Positions 31,693-63,951 of a DNA stretch of 64,000 nucleotides are shown piece after piece. The translations under genes were made by a program, and so were the position numbers. The stretch is from Akkermansia muciniphila (GTDB taxonomy: Bacteria > Verrucomicrobiota > Verrucomicrobiia > Verrucomicrobiales > Akkermansiaceae): positions 124,001 to 188,000 of the forward strand of contig CAMCIC010000005.1 of the NCBI GenBank assembly GCA_945874895.1, given 5' to 3'. Within the stretch, counting starts at the first letter, position 1. Each line of letters opens with the position of its first letter. Below the pieces are notes generated by a model. It saw only the letters and a program-made list of their open reading frames with translations, did not search any database and was not told the DNA's origin.

Positions 31693-33087
31693 CTAGGAGA
31701 GCCCTGCCACAAAAGGAAGACTCGCGGCCGCAACTGCTTGGCCGTGTCGCTTGGTCTTTTCGTCAGGAACCACGAGTTTGATCTTCAGTTGCGGAAACTC
31801 GGCAGCAAGAACTTTTTCTGCTTCACGAATGATGATGGCACCGCCTTCGCCCGAAGTCACACGGCCAAGGATGAGAAGGTTTTCGATGTCGTAGAAGTCG
31901 GCGTAGTGAGCGATCGAATACCCGAAGCAAACTCCGATGCTCTGATAGATGTTGGCGGCACGCGGATCACCCGCCTTCATGGCGTTCTGAACTTCCACCA
32001 GTTGTTCAGGAAAAGGCATCTTACCGAAGTCAAACCCGGCGGCGGGAGCGAGACGGGCGACGGCTTGTTGGGAGAAATACAAAGCGCCGCAGCCGCGATC
32101 GCCCGACCACTCATCGAGCGGACCGTTCTCACGGTAATCCACCGGCGCGAATGCGAGTTCATTCAACCATGGTTTGATGTGCCCTTGGGCATCGACATAG
32201 CCTGCGGCCTCGGAAGTCCCCATGGCAACCCCTAGCACCGAGTTGGCTTGCAGCCCCATCGATCCAGCCAAAGCCGTGACCTCGCCATCGTTGACCACCT
32301 CAAAGGGAATCCCATTCCAGCGCTCGTTTTTGAGAGTCGTAAAAATATGACGAACATGCTTTTCATAATCATCAGCCGCAACGCCTCGGAACAACGAGGA
32401 TGCGCGCACCTGATTGTCCATGATCACACCAGCGGAACTCCCACCGATCGCATCCACCCGCGGCAAATGAGCGGCGGCTCGCACCAAGGAATCATGAATG
32501 CCCTCGATGTGATAGTTCGGATCGTTTTGGAAATACGGATCCCAGACCACTTCCTCGGAAAACACCACTTCGCCATCGATCACGGCCGCACACTTGCGGT
32601 CGGATCCACCGAGGTCGAAACCGATACGGCAACCTTGCAGGTTACGCCCCAGATTCATGGCCGCGCCCTTCTCTTGTGGCAGTTCTTCAAAAGTCGCAGC
32701 TTTCACCGTGATGGGTGAGCCGAAAATCTTGGTTCCGATGAACTCACGGTCAAAGTGTCGCTCGCCGTGTTGCGCATATTTCTCAGCCAGCATCGCTGCG
32801 ATGTCATGAGCACCTGCAACTGCAATGTGATTTCCGCCTTTTTGCCAGAGCAGGAATTTGACCAAACGCTCGATGTATTTCTCCGTCAACGACGCGTTTT
32901 CCGCTGTGTCTGAAAGCACTTTGCCCGACCAACGAAAACAAGTGCCATCATCGCGACTGAGAGCCAATTCCACATGCCGACCACCATGCGAAGCCATCGC
33001 CTCATAGGCGCGGTTCCATAACACGGCGGGAACAAATTCAGGGTCGAGAACAGGAGAAAATGAGGGGGAAATCGCAATCTGGCTCAT
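31693..33087 (-). CDS. ROK/ASKHA-type sugar kinase-like protein, substrate unknown
   Basis: A 464-residue protein. The C-terminal ~300 residues have ASKHA kinase features: phosphate-1 loop RIGFDLGGSDRKCAAVIDGE, DAIGGSSAGVIM, EVVNDGEVTALAGSMG with VLGVAMGTSEAAGYVD (phosphate-2), and LLILGRVTSGEGGAIII (adenosine). The group is nearest to ROK family glucokinase/repressor-like proteins, but the N-terminal ~130 residues (LFTRNGVGG-like extension) are unusual and the classical zinc motif is not evident. The start at 33087 follows a promoter-like sequence overlapping a long inverted repeat. It lies downstream of the WYL regulator on the same strand. Confidence 0.75.
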   Translation of the reverse strand: MSQIAISPSFSPVLDPEFVPAVLWNRAYEAMASHGGRHVELALSRDDGTCFRWSGKVLSDTAENASLTEKYIERLVKFLLWQKGGNHIAVAGAHDIAAMLAEKYAQHGERHFDREFIGTKIFGSPITVKAATFEELPQEKGAAMNLGRNLQGCRIGFDLGGSDRKCAAVIDGEVVFSEEVVWDPYFQNDPNYHIEGIHDSLVRAAAHLPRVDAIGGSSAGVIMDNQVRASSLFRGVAADDYEKHVRHIFTTLKNERWNGIPFEVVNDGEVTALAGSMGLQANSVLGVAMGTSEAAGYVDAQGHIKPWLNELAFAPVDYRENGPLDEWSGDRGCGALYFSQQAVARLAPAAGFDFGKMPFPEQLVEVQNAMKAGDPRAANIYQSIGVCFGYSIAHYADFYDIENLLILGRVTSGEGGAIIIREAEKVLAAEFPQLKIKLVVPDEKTKRHGQAVAAASLPFVAGLS

Positions 33088-33102
33088 ACGCGTGGAAACA
33101 GT

Positions 33103-33143
33103 AACGCGCAATCTGTATTTTGTGAAGATACAAATTGCGCGTT
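33103..33143. promoter_or_regulatory. Long inverted repeat ahead of the ROK-like gene
   Basis: AACGCGCAATCTGTAT (33103-33118) and ATACAAATTGCGCGTT (33128-33143) are complementary over 16 bp with one mismatch (a G-U pair in RNA), around a 9-base loop. It ends 15 bases before the ROK-like ATG and 24 bases after the WYL gene's stop. A minus-strand -35 TTCACA and -10 TACTGT overlap it. It has no T-tract, so it looks like an operator or a leader hairpin and not a terminator. Confidence 0.65.
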
Positions 33144-33167
33144 CTGTGAATTCGGACGCGAGTGGGA

Positions 33168-34037
33168 TTACGCTTCTTTTTTCTCGCTCACTACTTGGAA
33201 GTATGAGGCCCAAGGCTCTTTGGCATTGGCATCCCAAGGCAAACCGAGGTTGTGACGAACATATTTCACCATGGCCTTGCGAACACGCAGTTCGAGGGTG
33301 TCCGATGTCATACCGTAGTCCATTTTAAGAGCGGCCTTGGCTTCTTTGCTGAGAGAGGAGTTGGGCTTGAGCTTGAGGGTCACGAAAGTGTCCCAGTCAA
33401 CATCGGCGGGTGGTTCATCCACATCTTTTCTCGACCACTTGCACTCCTCCATGCGTCCCAGCACGAAGTCGCGCCACTCCAGTTGCTCGGTATCCCAGCA
33501 ACGGGCATGCCAGCGCGAGCCATCGTAACCGAGGGCACGAGGCATCAGGGTGCGGGTTTTGCGGGTGGAGCTGTTCACGGAGACGTAACGTGCTTCGATC
33601 GCCTCCTTGCGCAACAAGGCCATTACCAAGACACGAACAGCACGATCATTTACCACGCGTTGTGGCATGGTCACAATATCTGCCAGGTCTCCCGTTTGCC
33701 CCGGTGCCGAATCGGCACGAACTGCTAGTGCGGCGTGTCCTGGGTTCTGGCCGAACAACAAGGTCACGGCCTCTGTGAGACTGGGGCGATGAAGACGGCA
33801 GGTGAAACTCTCACTGGCTTCATAACGCTTGCGGTTCGGATGATAGATCACTCCATTGCGGTTCAATTCCAAGAAACGCTGGATGTCACCACTCGCCTGA
33901 GCTGCGGAAATTCCAAAGCAATCCAGAAGATCACCACGACGTACCCAACCCCGCCACCACAACAACACTTCGATCATACGAAGACGCTCGCGTGCAGCCC
34001 AATTTTCTTCATTTGTCAGATTACCCATATGCTTCAT
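33168..34037 (-). CDS. WYL-domain transcriptional regulator of the BrxR/CapW type
   Basis: A 289-residue regulator with an N-terminal winged helix (MIEVLLWWRGWVRRGDLLDCFGI then AQASGDIQRFLEL), a central WYL domain (RALGYDGSRWHARCWD...WRDFVLGRM), and a C-terminal WCX-like part (VTLKLKPNSSLSKEAKAAL...LELRVRKAMVKYVRHNLGL). The RWHxRCW and RDFVLxRM pattern is that of BrxR/CapW-type regulators, known as repressors of BREX and CBASS defence operons. No such defence genes are in this window: the neighbours are a ROK-like protein and ilvC. An inverted repeat overlaps its own promoter, which fits autorepression. Confidence 0.85.
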   Translation of the reverse strand: MKHMGNLTNEENWAARERLRMIEVLLWWRGWVRRGDLLDCFGISAAQASGDIQRFLELNRNGVIYHPNRKRYEASESFTCRLHRPSLTEAVTLLFGQNPGHAALAVRADSAPGQTGDLADIVTMPQRVVNDRAVRVLVMALLRKEAIEARYVSVNSSTRKTRTLMPRALGYDGSRWHARCWDTEQLEWRDFVLGRMEECKWSRKDVDEPPADVDWDTFVTLKLKPNSSLSKEAKAALKMDYGMTSDTLELRVRKAMVKYVRHNLGLPWDANAKEPWASYFQVVSEKKEA

Positions 34038-35478: not shown

Positions 35479-36177
35479 CTACCAAACTGACTCGCAGGTC
35501 CCGCTGTTCACGATCGCTTGCAGCGCACCCACTTTGGCAAAATCTTTCACTCCTGGCGAAATCTCCGCGCCGGACGCGATATCGATCGCCGCAGGACGCA
35601 CCGTAGCAATGGCATCAGCCGCGTTGGCGGGAGTAATGCCACCCGCCAGCAGAATGGGCATCGATGGGAAACCCTTCTTCGCCTCGTTCGCCAGCGACCA
35701 ATCGAACGTGGCCCCCGTGCCGCCGTAGACACCGGGAGCAGCTGTATCAAGGAGCAAGGCATTCGCTTGTTCGTAATCGCGCAAGGACGACAAATCTCCC
35801 GCATCGCGGATGCCCAGCGCCTTGATGCAGGGAATGCCCCGATCCAAGAGGATCGTCATTTCGGCAGGAGTCTCGTCCCCATGCAACTGAGCGATATCAA
35901 TCCAGCCTTTGCTGTGCAGCTCGGTGATGAAATCCAGATCCGCATTGACAAACACTCCGACACGAACGATGGATCCTTTCAACTCCATGAGCCAAGGGGC
36001 GGCATCATCGGGATCGATAAAACGTTTCGAAAGCGGCCAGAAATTCACCCCCAAGGCGGCGACCCCCGCATCGACTAAGCCTCGAGCATCAGAATCCCTG
36101 GTCACACCGCAAATTTTCAAAGAACAGCGATGGGTCGATAAAAACGATTCAATCAAGTGGTCGCATTCAGAACTCAT
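35479..36177 (-). CDS. trpF: Phosphoribosylanthranilate isomerase
   Basis: Amadori rearrangement step of tryptophan synthesis. The 232-residue TIM barrel shows the signature: LKICGVTRDSDARGLVDAG (catalytic Cys), GVFVNADLDFI, IAQLHGDE, ALLLDTAAPG (catalytic Asp), LAGGITPANAADAI and DIASGAEISPG, the phosphate-binding end. No other trp genes are nearby, which is common when pathway genes are scattered. ATG at 36177 was chosen. It sits upstream of ilvC on the same strand; the gap of ~139 bases suggests separate transcription. Confidence 0.95.
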   Translation of the reverse strand: MSSECDHLIESFLSTHRCSLKICGVTRDSDARGLVDAGVAALGVNFWPLSKRFIDPDDAAPWLMELKGSIVRVGVFVNADLDFITELHSKGWIDIAQLHGDETPAEMTILLDRGIPCIKALGIRDAGDLSSLRDYEQANALLLDTAAPGVYGGTGATFDWSLANEAKKGFPSMPILLAGGITPANAADAIATVRPAAIDIASGAEISPGVKDFAKVGALQAIVNSGTCESVW

Positions 36178-61028: not shown

Positions 61029-61895
61029 ATGAAACAACCTATGAAAATCGCTTTCCCTTTGATGGCCGCGTTTACCTGCATTTCCCACGCCGATGACCTC
61101 GATTACGGGGTATCCAAAGCGGAGTGGTTTTCTTATGGAAGCTTGGACGCCAGCGATCGCTCCCATGAGTTGCAGATGCAGCAATGGCGCATGCAAACCC
61201 CCTTCAGCCAACCCATCAAACTGGCAGATTCTTTCTACCTGATGCCCGCCATCCGTTATGAAATCATTGATTTCGAAGGCGTAAATCCAGAAAAACGAGC
61301 CTTCCAAGATGAATTGCATATGGTCGAATTACCGCTGCTATTTGTTTATAAACCCGGGGAATCACCCTGGAACTACAATGCGCGCTTGAGCCCAGGCATT
61401 TCGTCAGACATGCACTCGATTAGCATGGATGATGTGTTTTGCGATGCCAGACTCGGCGCAACCTATCAAGTGAACGACCGCCTCAACATCAATTTCGGAA
61501 TTTCCTACACGCGCGCCATCGGAGAGCCTCAGATCTTTCCTTACCTCGGATTTGTCTATGAAATGAACGACCAATGGCAATTTGCATGGCGCGGATTTTC
61601 CCTCGAAGCCCGCTGCCACCTCAGCGAGTCATGGATCTTCCGCCTAAAAAGCGAAGCGGCCGGTGGCTACTGGAACATCGATACGCCGAGCTCAGACTAT
61701 CTCACCTTGCAAAGGTATCGAATGGGATTCACTCTCGAACACGAAGTCCAAGACGATCTGTGGGTGATCGCTGGTGCTGGTTACACGCTCGCCAATGAAG
61801 CGAGTTGGCTCAACGCATCGGGCGATACCTTGCGCGATACAGAATACGACAACGGCTTTTATTTCAACCTGGGCCTGCGATTGCGCGACTGGTGA
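61029..61895 (+). CDS. Outer-membrane beta-barrel protein, DUF6268-like
   Basis: 288-residue exported protein with a signal peptide (KIAFPLMAAFTCISHA). The rest alternates aromatic/hydrophobic strands as in outer-membrane barrels: SFYLMPAIRYEIIDFEGV, ELPLLFVYKPGESPWNYNARL, ARLGATYQVNDRLNINFGIS, FPYLGFVYEMNDQWQFAWRGF and the end NGFYFNLGLRLRDW, with a terminal aromatic residue. I place it near DUF6268 with moderate confidence. It overlaps the convergent SET-domain gene by 37 bases at its 3' end. Substrate or role unknown. Confidence 0.78.
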   Translation: MKQPMKIAFPLMAAFTCISHADDLDYGVSKAEWFSYGSLDASDRSHELQMQQWRMQTPFSQPIKLADSFYLMPAIRYEIIDFEGVNPEKRAFQDELHMVELPLLFVYKPGESPWNYNARLSPGISSDMHSISMDDVFCDARLGATYQVNDRLNINFGISYTRAIGEPQIFPYLGFVYEMNDQWQFAWRGFSLEARCHLSESWIFRLKSEAAGGYWNIDTPSSDYLTLQRYRMGFTLEHEVQDDLWVIAGAGYTLANEASWLNASGDTLRDTEYDNGFYFNLGLRLRDW

Positions 61896-62464
61896 GTGGC
61901 TTCCACTTCGGCTTGTTTTGCCCGTTTTTTTATCTCCAGTTCCGCCCACTGGGTGCGGCTTACGATATGACCCACACATGATTTTTTGCCGCAACGGCAT
62001 GGATGCTCCTCCCATGTATCGACGTCAAATCCGTAATCAAAGGATAGCTCTTCCCCCTCTTTTATAGCGCGGAGCGCATGAATAAAAATACGCGATCCAT
62101 CGATCCATGCTTCGCAATTCGGTTCGCATGAATGATTGATCAAGCGGGCGGTGTTCCATGGCAGATTGCCATCGAGATCGTATTGATCATCCACGGTGAA
62201 GATGTAAACGGCGGCATCACCATGCTTTTCGGCTCGCTCCGCTTGGATGTGAGCACGCCGATCACTCTCCTCCTTGTCGATCAACTCACCGACATACTCG
62301 ATGATCTTTTCCCCTTTTTTGATCGGTCGGCTCGCATACACGCCCCGCCCGTGAATCGCAGAGTTCCGCACTTCACAGAGTTCGCTCTGCGCTTCTTCCC
62401 ATAGTTTCTTCATCTTGCGGATCAGCTTAGCCGTTTTTTCCGCCTTCGATTTTTGTTTGCCCAT
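61859..62464 (-). CDS. SET-domain protein (putative lysine methyltransferase)
   Basis: 201-residue protein with a complete SET domain: VRNSAIHGRGVYASRPIKKGEKIIEYVGELI (N-terminal SET), TARLINHSCEPNCEAWI (SAM-binding NHSxxPN), GEELSFDYGFD (catalytic Tyr region) and a post-SET-like cysteine cluster CRCGKKSCVG. This arrangement is eukaryote-like and uncommon in bacteria, although it is known from Chlamydiae and some Verrucomicrobiota. Substrate is unknown. ATG at 62464 chosen; a frame-open start at 62497 would overlap the upstream gene. The C-terminus is basic (RNRRPRLK). Confidence 0.9.
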   Translation of the reverse strand: MGKQKSKAEKTAKLIRKMKKLWEEAQSELCEVRNSAIHGRGVYASRPIKKGEKIIEYVGELIDKEESDRRAHIQAERAEKHGDAAVYIFTVDDQYDLDGNLPWNTARLINHSCEPNCEAWIDGSRIFIHALRAIKEGEELSFDYGFDVDTWEEHPCRCGKKSCVGHIVSRTQWAELEIKKRAKQAEVEATHQSRNRRPRLK

Positions 62465-62481
62465 GCCCTCTCGTTTTCCGA

Positions 62482-63102
62482 TTACTGATTCAACCATTCC
62501 TCTTTGGGTATCGCGCGTCGCTGGATCGCAGGCAGTTCCATGTCTGCTGGGAGACTGATGAAAAGACTGCGCATGTCTTGTACGGTTAGACCAGCACCAT
62601 CAATGAAAGTCCATTGTGGTTTATCCTTGTCAGCAATCGCAACTTGGAATCCTTTGCTCTCGATCACCATCGACTCTTGTTTTTGAATCACGCGATAACG
62701 GACTTCCGTGGGAACTAGCAACAACCACTTGGTATTGACCAATGTTTCCACTTGCTTGCCATCCACCAATTCCACTTTTTTACCGGGAAAGACTTCATAC
62801 ACCTTGGGGAAGCCGTATGTCTTGAAGGAGATCATGCTCGTGCCTTGGCGCACCATTTCGGCCACTGCTTCGTCGAACTGTTTCTCGAGTGCTTGCTCAC
62901 TGCCCAACTTGCGACTCAATCGCTCTTTCCACTGTGGATACATTCGATCCAAGGATGTTTTCATTTTTCCCAACACTGCCTGACGGCCCAGGTCATTGAC
63001 AGCAGCAATGGCGGAATTCACTACCTCCAGCGGTGCGGTGGTCTGCGAATGAGCACCATACATCAATCCAAGGAACGTAAAAATCACGCATAAAATTTGC
63101 AT
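62482..63102 (-). CDS. Secreted protein of unknown function
   Basis: 206-residue exported protein with a signal peptide (MQILCVIFTFLGLMYGAHS). The mature part starts helical (VVNSAIAAVNDLGRQAVLGKMKTSLDRMYPQWKERLSRKLG, then KQFDEAVAEMVRQG) and ends in a beta-rich domain (KWLLLVPTEVRYRVIQKQESMVIESKGFQVAIA). No family is recognised. It lies 17 bases upstream of the SET-domain gene on the same strand and may be co-transcribed with it. Confidence 0.7.
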   Translation of the reverse strand: MQILCVIFTFLGLMYGAHSQTTAPLEVVNSAIAAVNDLGRQAVLGKMKTSLDRMYPQWKERLSRKLGSEQALEKQFDEAVAEMVRQGTSMISFKTYGFPKVYEVFPGKKVELVDGKQVETLVNTKWLLLVPTEVRYRVIQKQESMVIESKGFQVAIADKDKPQWTFIDGAGLTVQDMRSLFISLPADMELPAIQRRAIPKEEWLNQ

Positions 63103-63193
63103 GTGCTTGGTATGGCCTTGGCGACGGGCAGCGTCAAGCACGGGATGCGGAGGATGATCTCCTAGAAAAAAATTCCTTTATGGCATTTTTCTC

Positions 63194-63221
63194 TTGCCAG
63201 AATGGCACGCAGGACTAGAAT
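63194..63221 (+). promoter_or_regulatory. rpmI promoter with ultrashort leader
   Basis: -35 TTGCCA (63194-63199), 16-base spacer, -10 TAGAAT (63216-63221), then 9 bases to ATG at 63231. An inverted repeat TGCCA-GAA-TGGCA (63195-63207) overlaps the -35, with another TGGCA at 63181. Confidence 0.55.
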
Positions 63222-63230
63222 CCGCCCCCC

Positions 63231-63440
63231 ATGCCAGGTCCATCAGGCACATCCAAAACAAGAAAAGCTGTCGCCAAACGATTCAAGATCACCGGCACAG
63301 GCAAAGTTCTACGTCGCAAACAAGGCAAGCGCCACATTCTTCAGAAGAAGAGTTCGAAGCGCAAGCGCGCCCTCGGGCGTGCGGGTCTGGTTTCCGATGC
63401 TGACATCAAAAATGTCAAAGAGAACCTGCCTTTCGGTTAA
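63231..63440 (+). CDS. rpmI: 50S ribosomal protein L35
   Basis: 69-residue basic protein of the large ribosomal subunit: KTRKAVAKRFKITGTGKVLRRKQGKRHILQKKSSKRKR is the family core, and AGLVSDADIKNVKENLPFG the usual end. It is slightly longer at the N-terminus (MPGPSGTS). In most bacteria infC precedes rpmI; here it does not. rplT follows, but after an unusually long 139-base spacer. Confidence 0.95.
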   Translation: MPGPSGTSKTRKAVAKRFKITGTGKVLRRKQGKRHILQKKSSKRKRALGRAGLVSDADIKNVKENLPFG

Positions 63441-63579
63441 TTGAGTCGCAGTGACAACTGCGCACCCACCCGCGGTTCGGGTGGACTCCACACAGCCTAC
63501 CCCGTCACAAGGGTCACTCGTCAGGCGAGACTGTGGGAGTTAAGAAAACAAACAGCCTGCCGATAGAAAACACACCTAC
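63441..63579 (+). ncRNA. Structured rpmI-rplT spacer, candidate regulatory RNA
   Basis: The spacer folds on paper into a compact series: hairpin 1 CGCAGT/ACTGCG (63447-63462, GACA loop), hairpin 2 CCACCCG/CGGGTGG (63466-63484, CGGTT loop), and a closing helix ACTCC-CACAG / CTGTG-GGAGT (63485-63495 with 63531-63540, one bulged A) that encloses two small hairpins, ACCC/GGGT and CTCG/CGAG. That is a three-way-junction layout. L20 is known to repress its own operon by binding mRNA structures in E. coli and Bacillus. Here it could bind this element, but that is an inference. Confidence 0.5.
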
Positions 63580-63951
63580 ATGTCAAGAGCCACCAATTCC
63601 CCGGCCAGTCGCAAACGCCGCAAGCGTACGCTGCTCCGTGCGAAAGGTTTCCGCGGTTTCCGTTCGAAACTTTTCCGCTACGCTAAAGACGCTGTTCGTA
63701 AGGCGCAGACTTACGAATATCGCGACCGCAAAAAGCGAAAAGGTCAATTCCGCCGTCTGTGGATCGCGCGTATCAGCGCCGCCGTCCGCAACGAAGGTCT
63801 TACCTACTCGCGTTTCATCGAAGGCCTCAAGGCAGCTGGTATCGAAGCTGACCGCAAGATCCTCTCGGATCTGGCGATCACTGATGCCGCCGCGTTCAGC
63901 GCCATCGTGGCACAGGTCAAGAAAGCCCTGGAAGCGAAAGCCGCCGCTTGA
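63580..63951 (+). CDS. rplT: 50S ribosomal protein L20
   Basis: 123-residue large-subunit assembly protein with the basic N-terminal tail [91 protein letters not shown], the L20 core. The N-terminus (MSRATNSPA) is longer than usual and a little altered. The C-terminal Ala-rich end (EAKAAA) follows. L20 proteins are known translational repressors of their own operon. Confidence 0.96.

What the first reader, a model, noticed from the sequence alone, without database searches (positions are those of the whole stretch)
63441..63579. Compact multi-hairpin RNA candidate between rpmI and rplT
rpmI and rplT usually lie close together. Here 139 bases separate them, and they hold two perfect hairpins (6 and 7 bp), then a 10-bp helix with one bulge enclosing two further small stems, a three-way-junction layout. 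Nothing else in the window folds so densely. L20 (RplT) binds structured leader RNA and represses translation in E. coli and Bacillus, so this may be a lineage-specific L20-binding autoregulatory element or a new RNA motif.
Basis: partly seen in the sequence, partly recalled or inferred. Interest (0 to 1): 0.62.

Follow-up and report, generated by a model that had tools for sequence, protein, structure and literature searches.

The report
Pseudoknot RNA controlling ribosomal protein L20
Between two ribosomal-protein genes, Akkermansia-type bacteria carry a conserved knotted RNA that ends about 17 letters before the start of the L20 gene and probably lets the L20 protein shut down its own production; it is a new design for a known kind of feedback switch.

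Summary
The 139-nt rpmI–rplT spacer holds a real, conserved RNA, although the folding energy alone is unremarkable (z -1.9; rank 211 of 922 windows). The evidence is comparative. In 76 distinct Akkermansiaceae/Verrucomicrobiaceae spacers the helices covary strongly. All 8 of its pairs show double substitutions, and RNAalifold finds it de novo. It crosses the 10-bp helix, and invariant GAG(A)C and AAC sit at the junction. Across the order, a covariance model finds 89 hits in 113 genomes; 88 abut rplT. All 40 spacers sampled from other families, including 20 the model missed, have a candidate pseudoknot there. No Rfam family matches and I found no paper describing it. rpmI has a conserved promoter that leaves almost no 5' UTR, and rplT lacks a Shine-Dalgarno sequence. 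Best reading: an L20 autoregulatory r-leader with a new scaffold, repressing only rplT. L20 binding and rRNA mimicry are inferred, not shown. New variant of a known kind.

The parts
63194..63221 (+). promoter of rpmI: TTGCCA (63194-63199), 16 nt, TAGAAT (63216-63221); the -10 ends 9 nt before the rpmI ATG
   Evidence: consensus scan, 1 found vs 0.3 expected; same layout in relatives, -10-like hexamer ends 9 nt before ATG in 67 of 78
63231..63440 (+). rpmI, ribosomal protein bL35 (69 aa)
   Evidence: Pfam PF01632, E 5e-22
63447..63462 (+). P0 hairpin CGCAGU/ACUGCG, present only in near relatives
   Evidence: MFE fold; not conserved in alignment
63466..63484 (+). P1 hairpin, 7 bp (63466-63472 with 63478-63484)
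   Evidence: 7 of 7 pairs with double substitutions, 97% of cells paired; predicted de novo
63485..63540 (+). P2 helix: 63485-63489 + 63491-63495 with 63531-63540, bulged A63490; apical extension C63497-G63529 and U63498-A63528 with C63496.A63530 mismatch
   Evidence: 9 of 10 pairs with double substitutions, 93% of cells paired; apical positions tabulated in other families
63499..63514 (+). P3 small hairpin inserted between P2 and the pseudoknot strand (ACCC/GGGU here), sequence variable
   Evidence: MFE fold; hairpin recurs with different sequence in relatives; 58% of cells paired on the unrefined alignment
63519..63526 (+). pseudoknot 5' strand CGUCAGGC
   Evidence: 8 of 8 pairs with double substitutions, 0 of 500 shuffles reach the covariation score
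63527..63531 (+). junction GAGAC: G63527, A63528, G63529 and C63531 invariant in 76 sequences
   Evidence: GAG/GAA kept in the other families
63551..63553 (+). AAC directly before the 3' pseudoknot strand (plus one nt), invariant in 76 sequences; candidate L20-contact AA dimer
63555..63562 (+). pseudoknot 3' strand GCCUGCCG, ends 17 nt before the rplT AUG (13-18 nt in most relatives)
63563..63579 (+). A-rich unstructured start region of rplT without Shine-Dalgarno sequence
   Evidence: SD-like 4-mer in 3 of 80 Akkermansiaceae-type loci vs 17 of 18 from other classes lacking the element
63580..63951 (+). rplT, ribosomal protein bL20 (123 aa), the presumed regulated gene and presumed ligand
   Evidence: Pfam PF00453, E 2e-40

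Best explanation
It is a cis-acting RNA element of the rplT (bL20) mRNA, an L20 r-leader with a scaffold of its own. Shown by comparison: the transcript between rpmI and rplT forms hairpin P1 and then an H-type pseudoknot (helix P2, inserted hairpin P3, crossing helix PK) with invariant GAG(A)C and AAC at the junction; PK ends 13-18 nt before the rplT AUG in most relatives; rplT has no Shine-Dalgarno sequence; and rpmI is transcribed from a promoter so close to its AUG that no upstream leader fits. Inferred: when L20 exceeds free 23S rRNA, it binds and stabilises the pseudoknot, which lies in the upstream part of the 30S footprint, and blocks initiation at rplT. rpmI, translated from a near-leaderless 5' end, would escape direct control. 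When rRNA is plentiful, L20 is titrated away, the knot opens and rplT is translated.
For: Covariation of PK, P1 and P2. Candidate PK in all 120 spacers of the order examined, 114 of 122 sequences with at least 7 of 8 pairs and 112 above the 99th percentile of shuffled spacers. Association with rplT and nothing else: 88 of 89 model hits end at the rplT start. The sampled classes of the phylum without the element have short spacers with an SD instead. L20 is a known autogenous repressor through a pseudoknot beside the start codon in E. coli, by competition with the ribosome (PMC10931766; PMC6962249). Established L20 leaders share two consecutive G-C pairs and an AA dimer (PMC7247131); invariant A63551-A63552 and the conserved G63495-C63531 and C63497-G63529 pairs are candidates here.
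Against: No binding or expression data. The rRNA-mimicry mapping onto 23S H40-H41 is not unique. Known L20 control acts on the whole operon; here rpmI lies upstream of the element. A structure 5' of an SD-less start could equally help initiation. Folding energy is near background.
Confidence: 0.7

Rival explanations
1. The pseudoknot is a constitutive translation-initiation or insulation element of the SD-less rplT start: it keeps the A-rich start region single-stranded and presents it to the 30S subunit, without binding L20.
For: SD is nearly absent where the element is present and nearly universal in the sampled classes that lack it; A-rich unpaired stretch right before AUG.
Against: Invariant junction nucleotides in 76 sequences suggest specific recognition; a mere spacer needs no pseudoknot kept through an order.
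Confidence: 0.15
2. It is an mRNA processing or stability element (endonuclease site or 3' stabiliser for rpmI) that sets the L35:L20 ratio.
For: P1 is a stable hairpin shortly after the rpmI stop; intergenic position.
Against: Conservation is densest in PK, GAG and AAC near rplT, not at the rpmI end.
Confidence: 0.07
3. It is a leader responding to another ligand (bL35, IF3 or another factor).
For: No ligand has been tested; no infC was seen beside rpmI.
Against: In 88 of 89 hits it stands directly before rplT and L20 is the established regulator of this operon elsewhere.
Confidence: 0.06
4. It is a transcription attenuator or terminator, as in the Bacillus L20 leader.
For: The Bacillus L20 leader works this way.
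Against: No U-tract terminator in the spacer; RF00558 does not match it.
Confidence: 0.02

Closest known systems
E. coli bL20 operator (infC-rpmI region; pseudoknot site 1 plus irregular stem site 2)
   Same: A pseudoknot whose 3' part lies just upstream of a start codon; expected competition with the 30S subunit at the translation level.
   Different: In E. coli it is long-range, spans the infC 3' end and controls rpmI with rplT through coupling; here it is compact (about 80 nt for P2/P3/PK), lies between rpmI and rplT, and no second site was identified.
Bacillus/Firmicutes L20_leader (Rfam RF00558)
   Same: cis RNA of an operon holding rplT; presumed ligand L20.
   Different: RF00558 is before infC and attenuates transcription with a terminator; no RF00558 match here and no terminator.
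Deltaproteobacteria L20 r-leader candidate (Eckert and Weinberg 2020, PMC7247131)
   Same: Structurally independent L20 leader candidate found by comparative analysis, proposed to keep the G-C pair/AA dimer features.
   Different: Reported for a different group; the text of that paper mentions neither Verrucomicrobia nor a pseudoknot.

Membership tests
L20 autoregulatory r-leader (functional kind) | lies in cis in the mRNA directly before an L20-operon gene, and only there | tested here: met
   88 of 89 R1 hits in 113 genomes of the order end at the rplT start
L20 autoregulatory r-leader (functional kind) | conserved RNA structure supported by covariation | tested here: met
   P1, P2 and PK covary, 0 of 500 shuffles reach the score
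L20 autoregulatory r-leader (functional kind) | mimics the 23S H40-H41 L20 site (two consecutive G-C pairs and an AA dimer) | tested here: inconclusive
   invariant AA and conserved G-C pairs exist at the junction, but no unique mapping to E. coli 23S could be fixed
L20 autoregulatory r-leader (functional kind) | binds L20 and represses expression | not testable with these tools
   needs binding and reporter assays
Rfam RF00558 L20_leader | match to the covariance model | tested here: not met
   none in window at gathering; none in 63141-63700 at E<=10; none in 20 relatives' spacers at E<=1; two weak hits elsewhere in related genomes are terminator-like
E. coli-type L20 operator | pseudoknot adjacent to the regulated start codon | tested here: met
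   PK ends 13-18 nt before rplT AUG in most sequences
E. coli-type L20 operator | located between infC and rpmI, controlling both rpmI and rplT | tested here: not met
   element is downstream of rpmI; the gene upstream of rpmI is divergent

The most novel reading that the evidence does not exclude
A phylum-specific L20 control system in which rpmI is leaderless and unregulated while only SD-less rplT is gated by a pseudoknot. In the sampled genomes of the order it is a pseudoknot; in most sampled families from other orders of the same class it takes the form of a simpler GGGU-GA..GCG-ACCC hairpin that may resemble the 23S H40-H41 site. The lineage would then show a stepwise change of r-leader scaffold around one L20-binding core.
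Probability: 0.25. Interest if true: 0.75.

Novelty: new variant of a known kind. Interest (0 to 1): 0.58.

Why it matters
It adds a structurally new L20 leader candidate, conserved through an order that includes the gut bacterium Akkermansia, where no r-protein leader was found described in the library held. It places control inside the operon, after a gene that is probably leaderless, which makes testable how feedback works where Shine-Dalgarno initiation is not used. It also offers a case of repeated evolution of RNA scaffolds for one protein.

Tried and rejected
Rfam RF00558: two weak genome hits in relatives are U-tract terminator matches and lie elsewhere. My first idea that GAGAC corresponds to 23S AGAC near nt 1047 was dropped: the Rfam LSU structure puts that at the base of the GTPase-centre arm, not at H40-H41; the GGU/ACC resemblance to nt 1002-1004/1151-1153 is only suggestive, because those bases covary in the leader. 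The claim of unusual folding density was rejected. The three out-of-order R1 hits in the phylum (G284, G184, G294) are stray: G294's rplT is on another contig, and no rplT was found by tblastn around the other two. Choonee 2007, Guillier 2002, Fu 2013 and Weinberg 2017 were not in the library. The genome has no 23S in its assembly.

Full report
Observation. rpmI (63231-63440) and rplT (63580-63951) are separated by exactly 139 nt. Among 922 windows of 139 nt on both strands the + strand ranks 211th by energy and 113th by z. Energy alone would not justify the finding.

Comparative evidence. The RplT search returned 80 loci from other Akkermansiaceae/Verrucomicrobiaceae genomes. Counting the window's own genome, 80 of the 81 loci include an rpmI-rplT spacer, 128-180 nt long. 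A sequence-only MAFFT alignment of 76 distinct sequences was folded de novo by RNAalifold. It chose exactly two helices, P1 and a long-range helix pairing the stretch before GAGAC with the stretch just upstream of the rplT AUG, and all 14 pairs have double substitutions. With P2 added, that long-range helix is a pseudoknot. Pair counts: P1 7/7, P2 9/10 and PK 8/8 pairs with double substitutions, 92-97% of cells paired, no shuffle reaching the covariation score, and sliding the partners by one column destroys it. P3 is a hairpin of variable sequence whose columns are poorly aligned (58%).

Breadth. A covariance model of P1+P2 only (R1) searched in 113 genomes of the order gave 89 hits in 88 genomes; 88 of the 89 hits end at the rplT start. 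I fetched 20 spacers from genomes without a hit and 20 distant ones. In a script that demanded GA, then AAC plus one nt, then an 8-bp helix, all 120 spacers of the order gave a candidate; over the 122 sequences scored, 114 had at least 7 of 8 pairs and 112 exceeded the 99th percentile of dinucleotide-shuffled spacers. The script presupposes AAC, so only the 76-sequence alignment is independent evidence for its invariance. Two further families of the class (L143, L152) show the pseudoknot by eye. Of 20 genomes sampled from other orders of the class, 13 have a hairpin GGGU-GA...GCG-ACCC in the spacer, which I regard as a possible relative, not a member. In 18 sampled members of other classes, most spacers are short and 17 have a Shine-Dalgarno-like sequence.

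Anatomy. P2 extends at its tip: C63497-G63529 and U63498-A63528 are kept in nearly all families, while the pair between them and the rest of P2 (63496:63530) is C.A in this family and C-G, A-U, U-A or U-G elsewhere. G63527 separates P2 from PK on one side and AAC+1 nt on the other. This is a compact H-type pseudoknot with an A-rich crossing loop. PK ends 17 nt before AUG here and 13-18 nt in most relatives, i.e. in the upstream part of where a 30S subunit would sit (general knowledge). rplT has no Shine-Dalgarno sequence here (3 of 80 in the family).

Operon context. The gene upstream of rpmI is divergent. The rpmI promoter TTGCCA-16-TAGAAT ends 9 nt before AUG, the same distance in 67 of 78 relatives, so the 5' UTR should be a few nt at most. 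Leaderless TSSs were reported for 10% of Akkermansia muciniphila TSSs (PMC4782308). There is thus no room for an L20 leader before rpmI, which fits the placement between the genes.

Mechanism. L20 represses its operon in E. coli through a pseudoknot near the rpmI start by competition with the ribosome, and in Bacillus by transcription attenuation (PMC10931766; PMC6962249). The same ligand and a translational mode are the economical reading here: L20 stabilises the knot, the 30S subunit cannot load on the SD-less start, and rplT is repressed. No terminator is present in the spacer. The ligand and the sign of regulation are inferred. Eckert and Weinberg (PMC7247131) describe two consecutive G-C pairs and an AA dimer as the common denominator of L20 leaders; candidates exist here but I could not fix a unique correspondence with 23S.

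Novelty. No Rfam family matches in the window or in relatives; searches of the paper library for Verrucomicrobial r-leaders or for rplT in Akkermansia found nothing relevant. Several key papers and preprints are not held, so an earlier description cannot be excluded.

Noticed in passing
window 63194-63231: Conserved rpmI promoter (CTTGCCA ... TAGnnT) ending 9 nt before ATG with a C-rich start (CCCCATG) in most relatives: probable leaderless rpmI mRNA.
   Followed up: partly
L138, L140, L142, L144, L146, L147, L149, L150, L151, L153, L154, L155, L157 (spacer before rplT): Other orders of the class have a hairpin GGGU-GA(n)GCG-ACCC in the rpmI-rplT spacer, with an outer stem resembling 23S H40-H41 (GC-UA(A)-helix / helix-A-GC) in some.
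   Followed up: partly
window 33083-33221 (+) and 35724-35862 (+): Stretches with much stronger folding z-scores (-6.0 and -5.4, 16 shuffles each) than the finding.
   Followed up: no
window 61859-62497 (-): SET-domain protein (212 aa, PF00856 E 3e-26) upstream of the cluster, a family better known from eukaryotic lysine methyltransferases.
   Followed up: no
G091:C1:272820-273155: A second, diverged rplT-like copy (46% identity) with an in-frame TGA about 6 kb from the intact rplT in a related genome.
   Followed up: no
G087:C34:34477-34624: The one R1 hit in the order that is not beside rplT (E 4e-4); probably chance.
   Followed up: no
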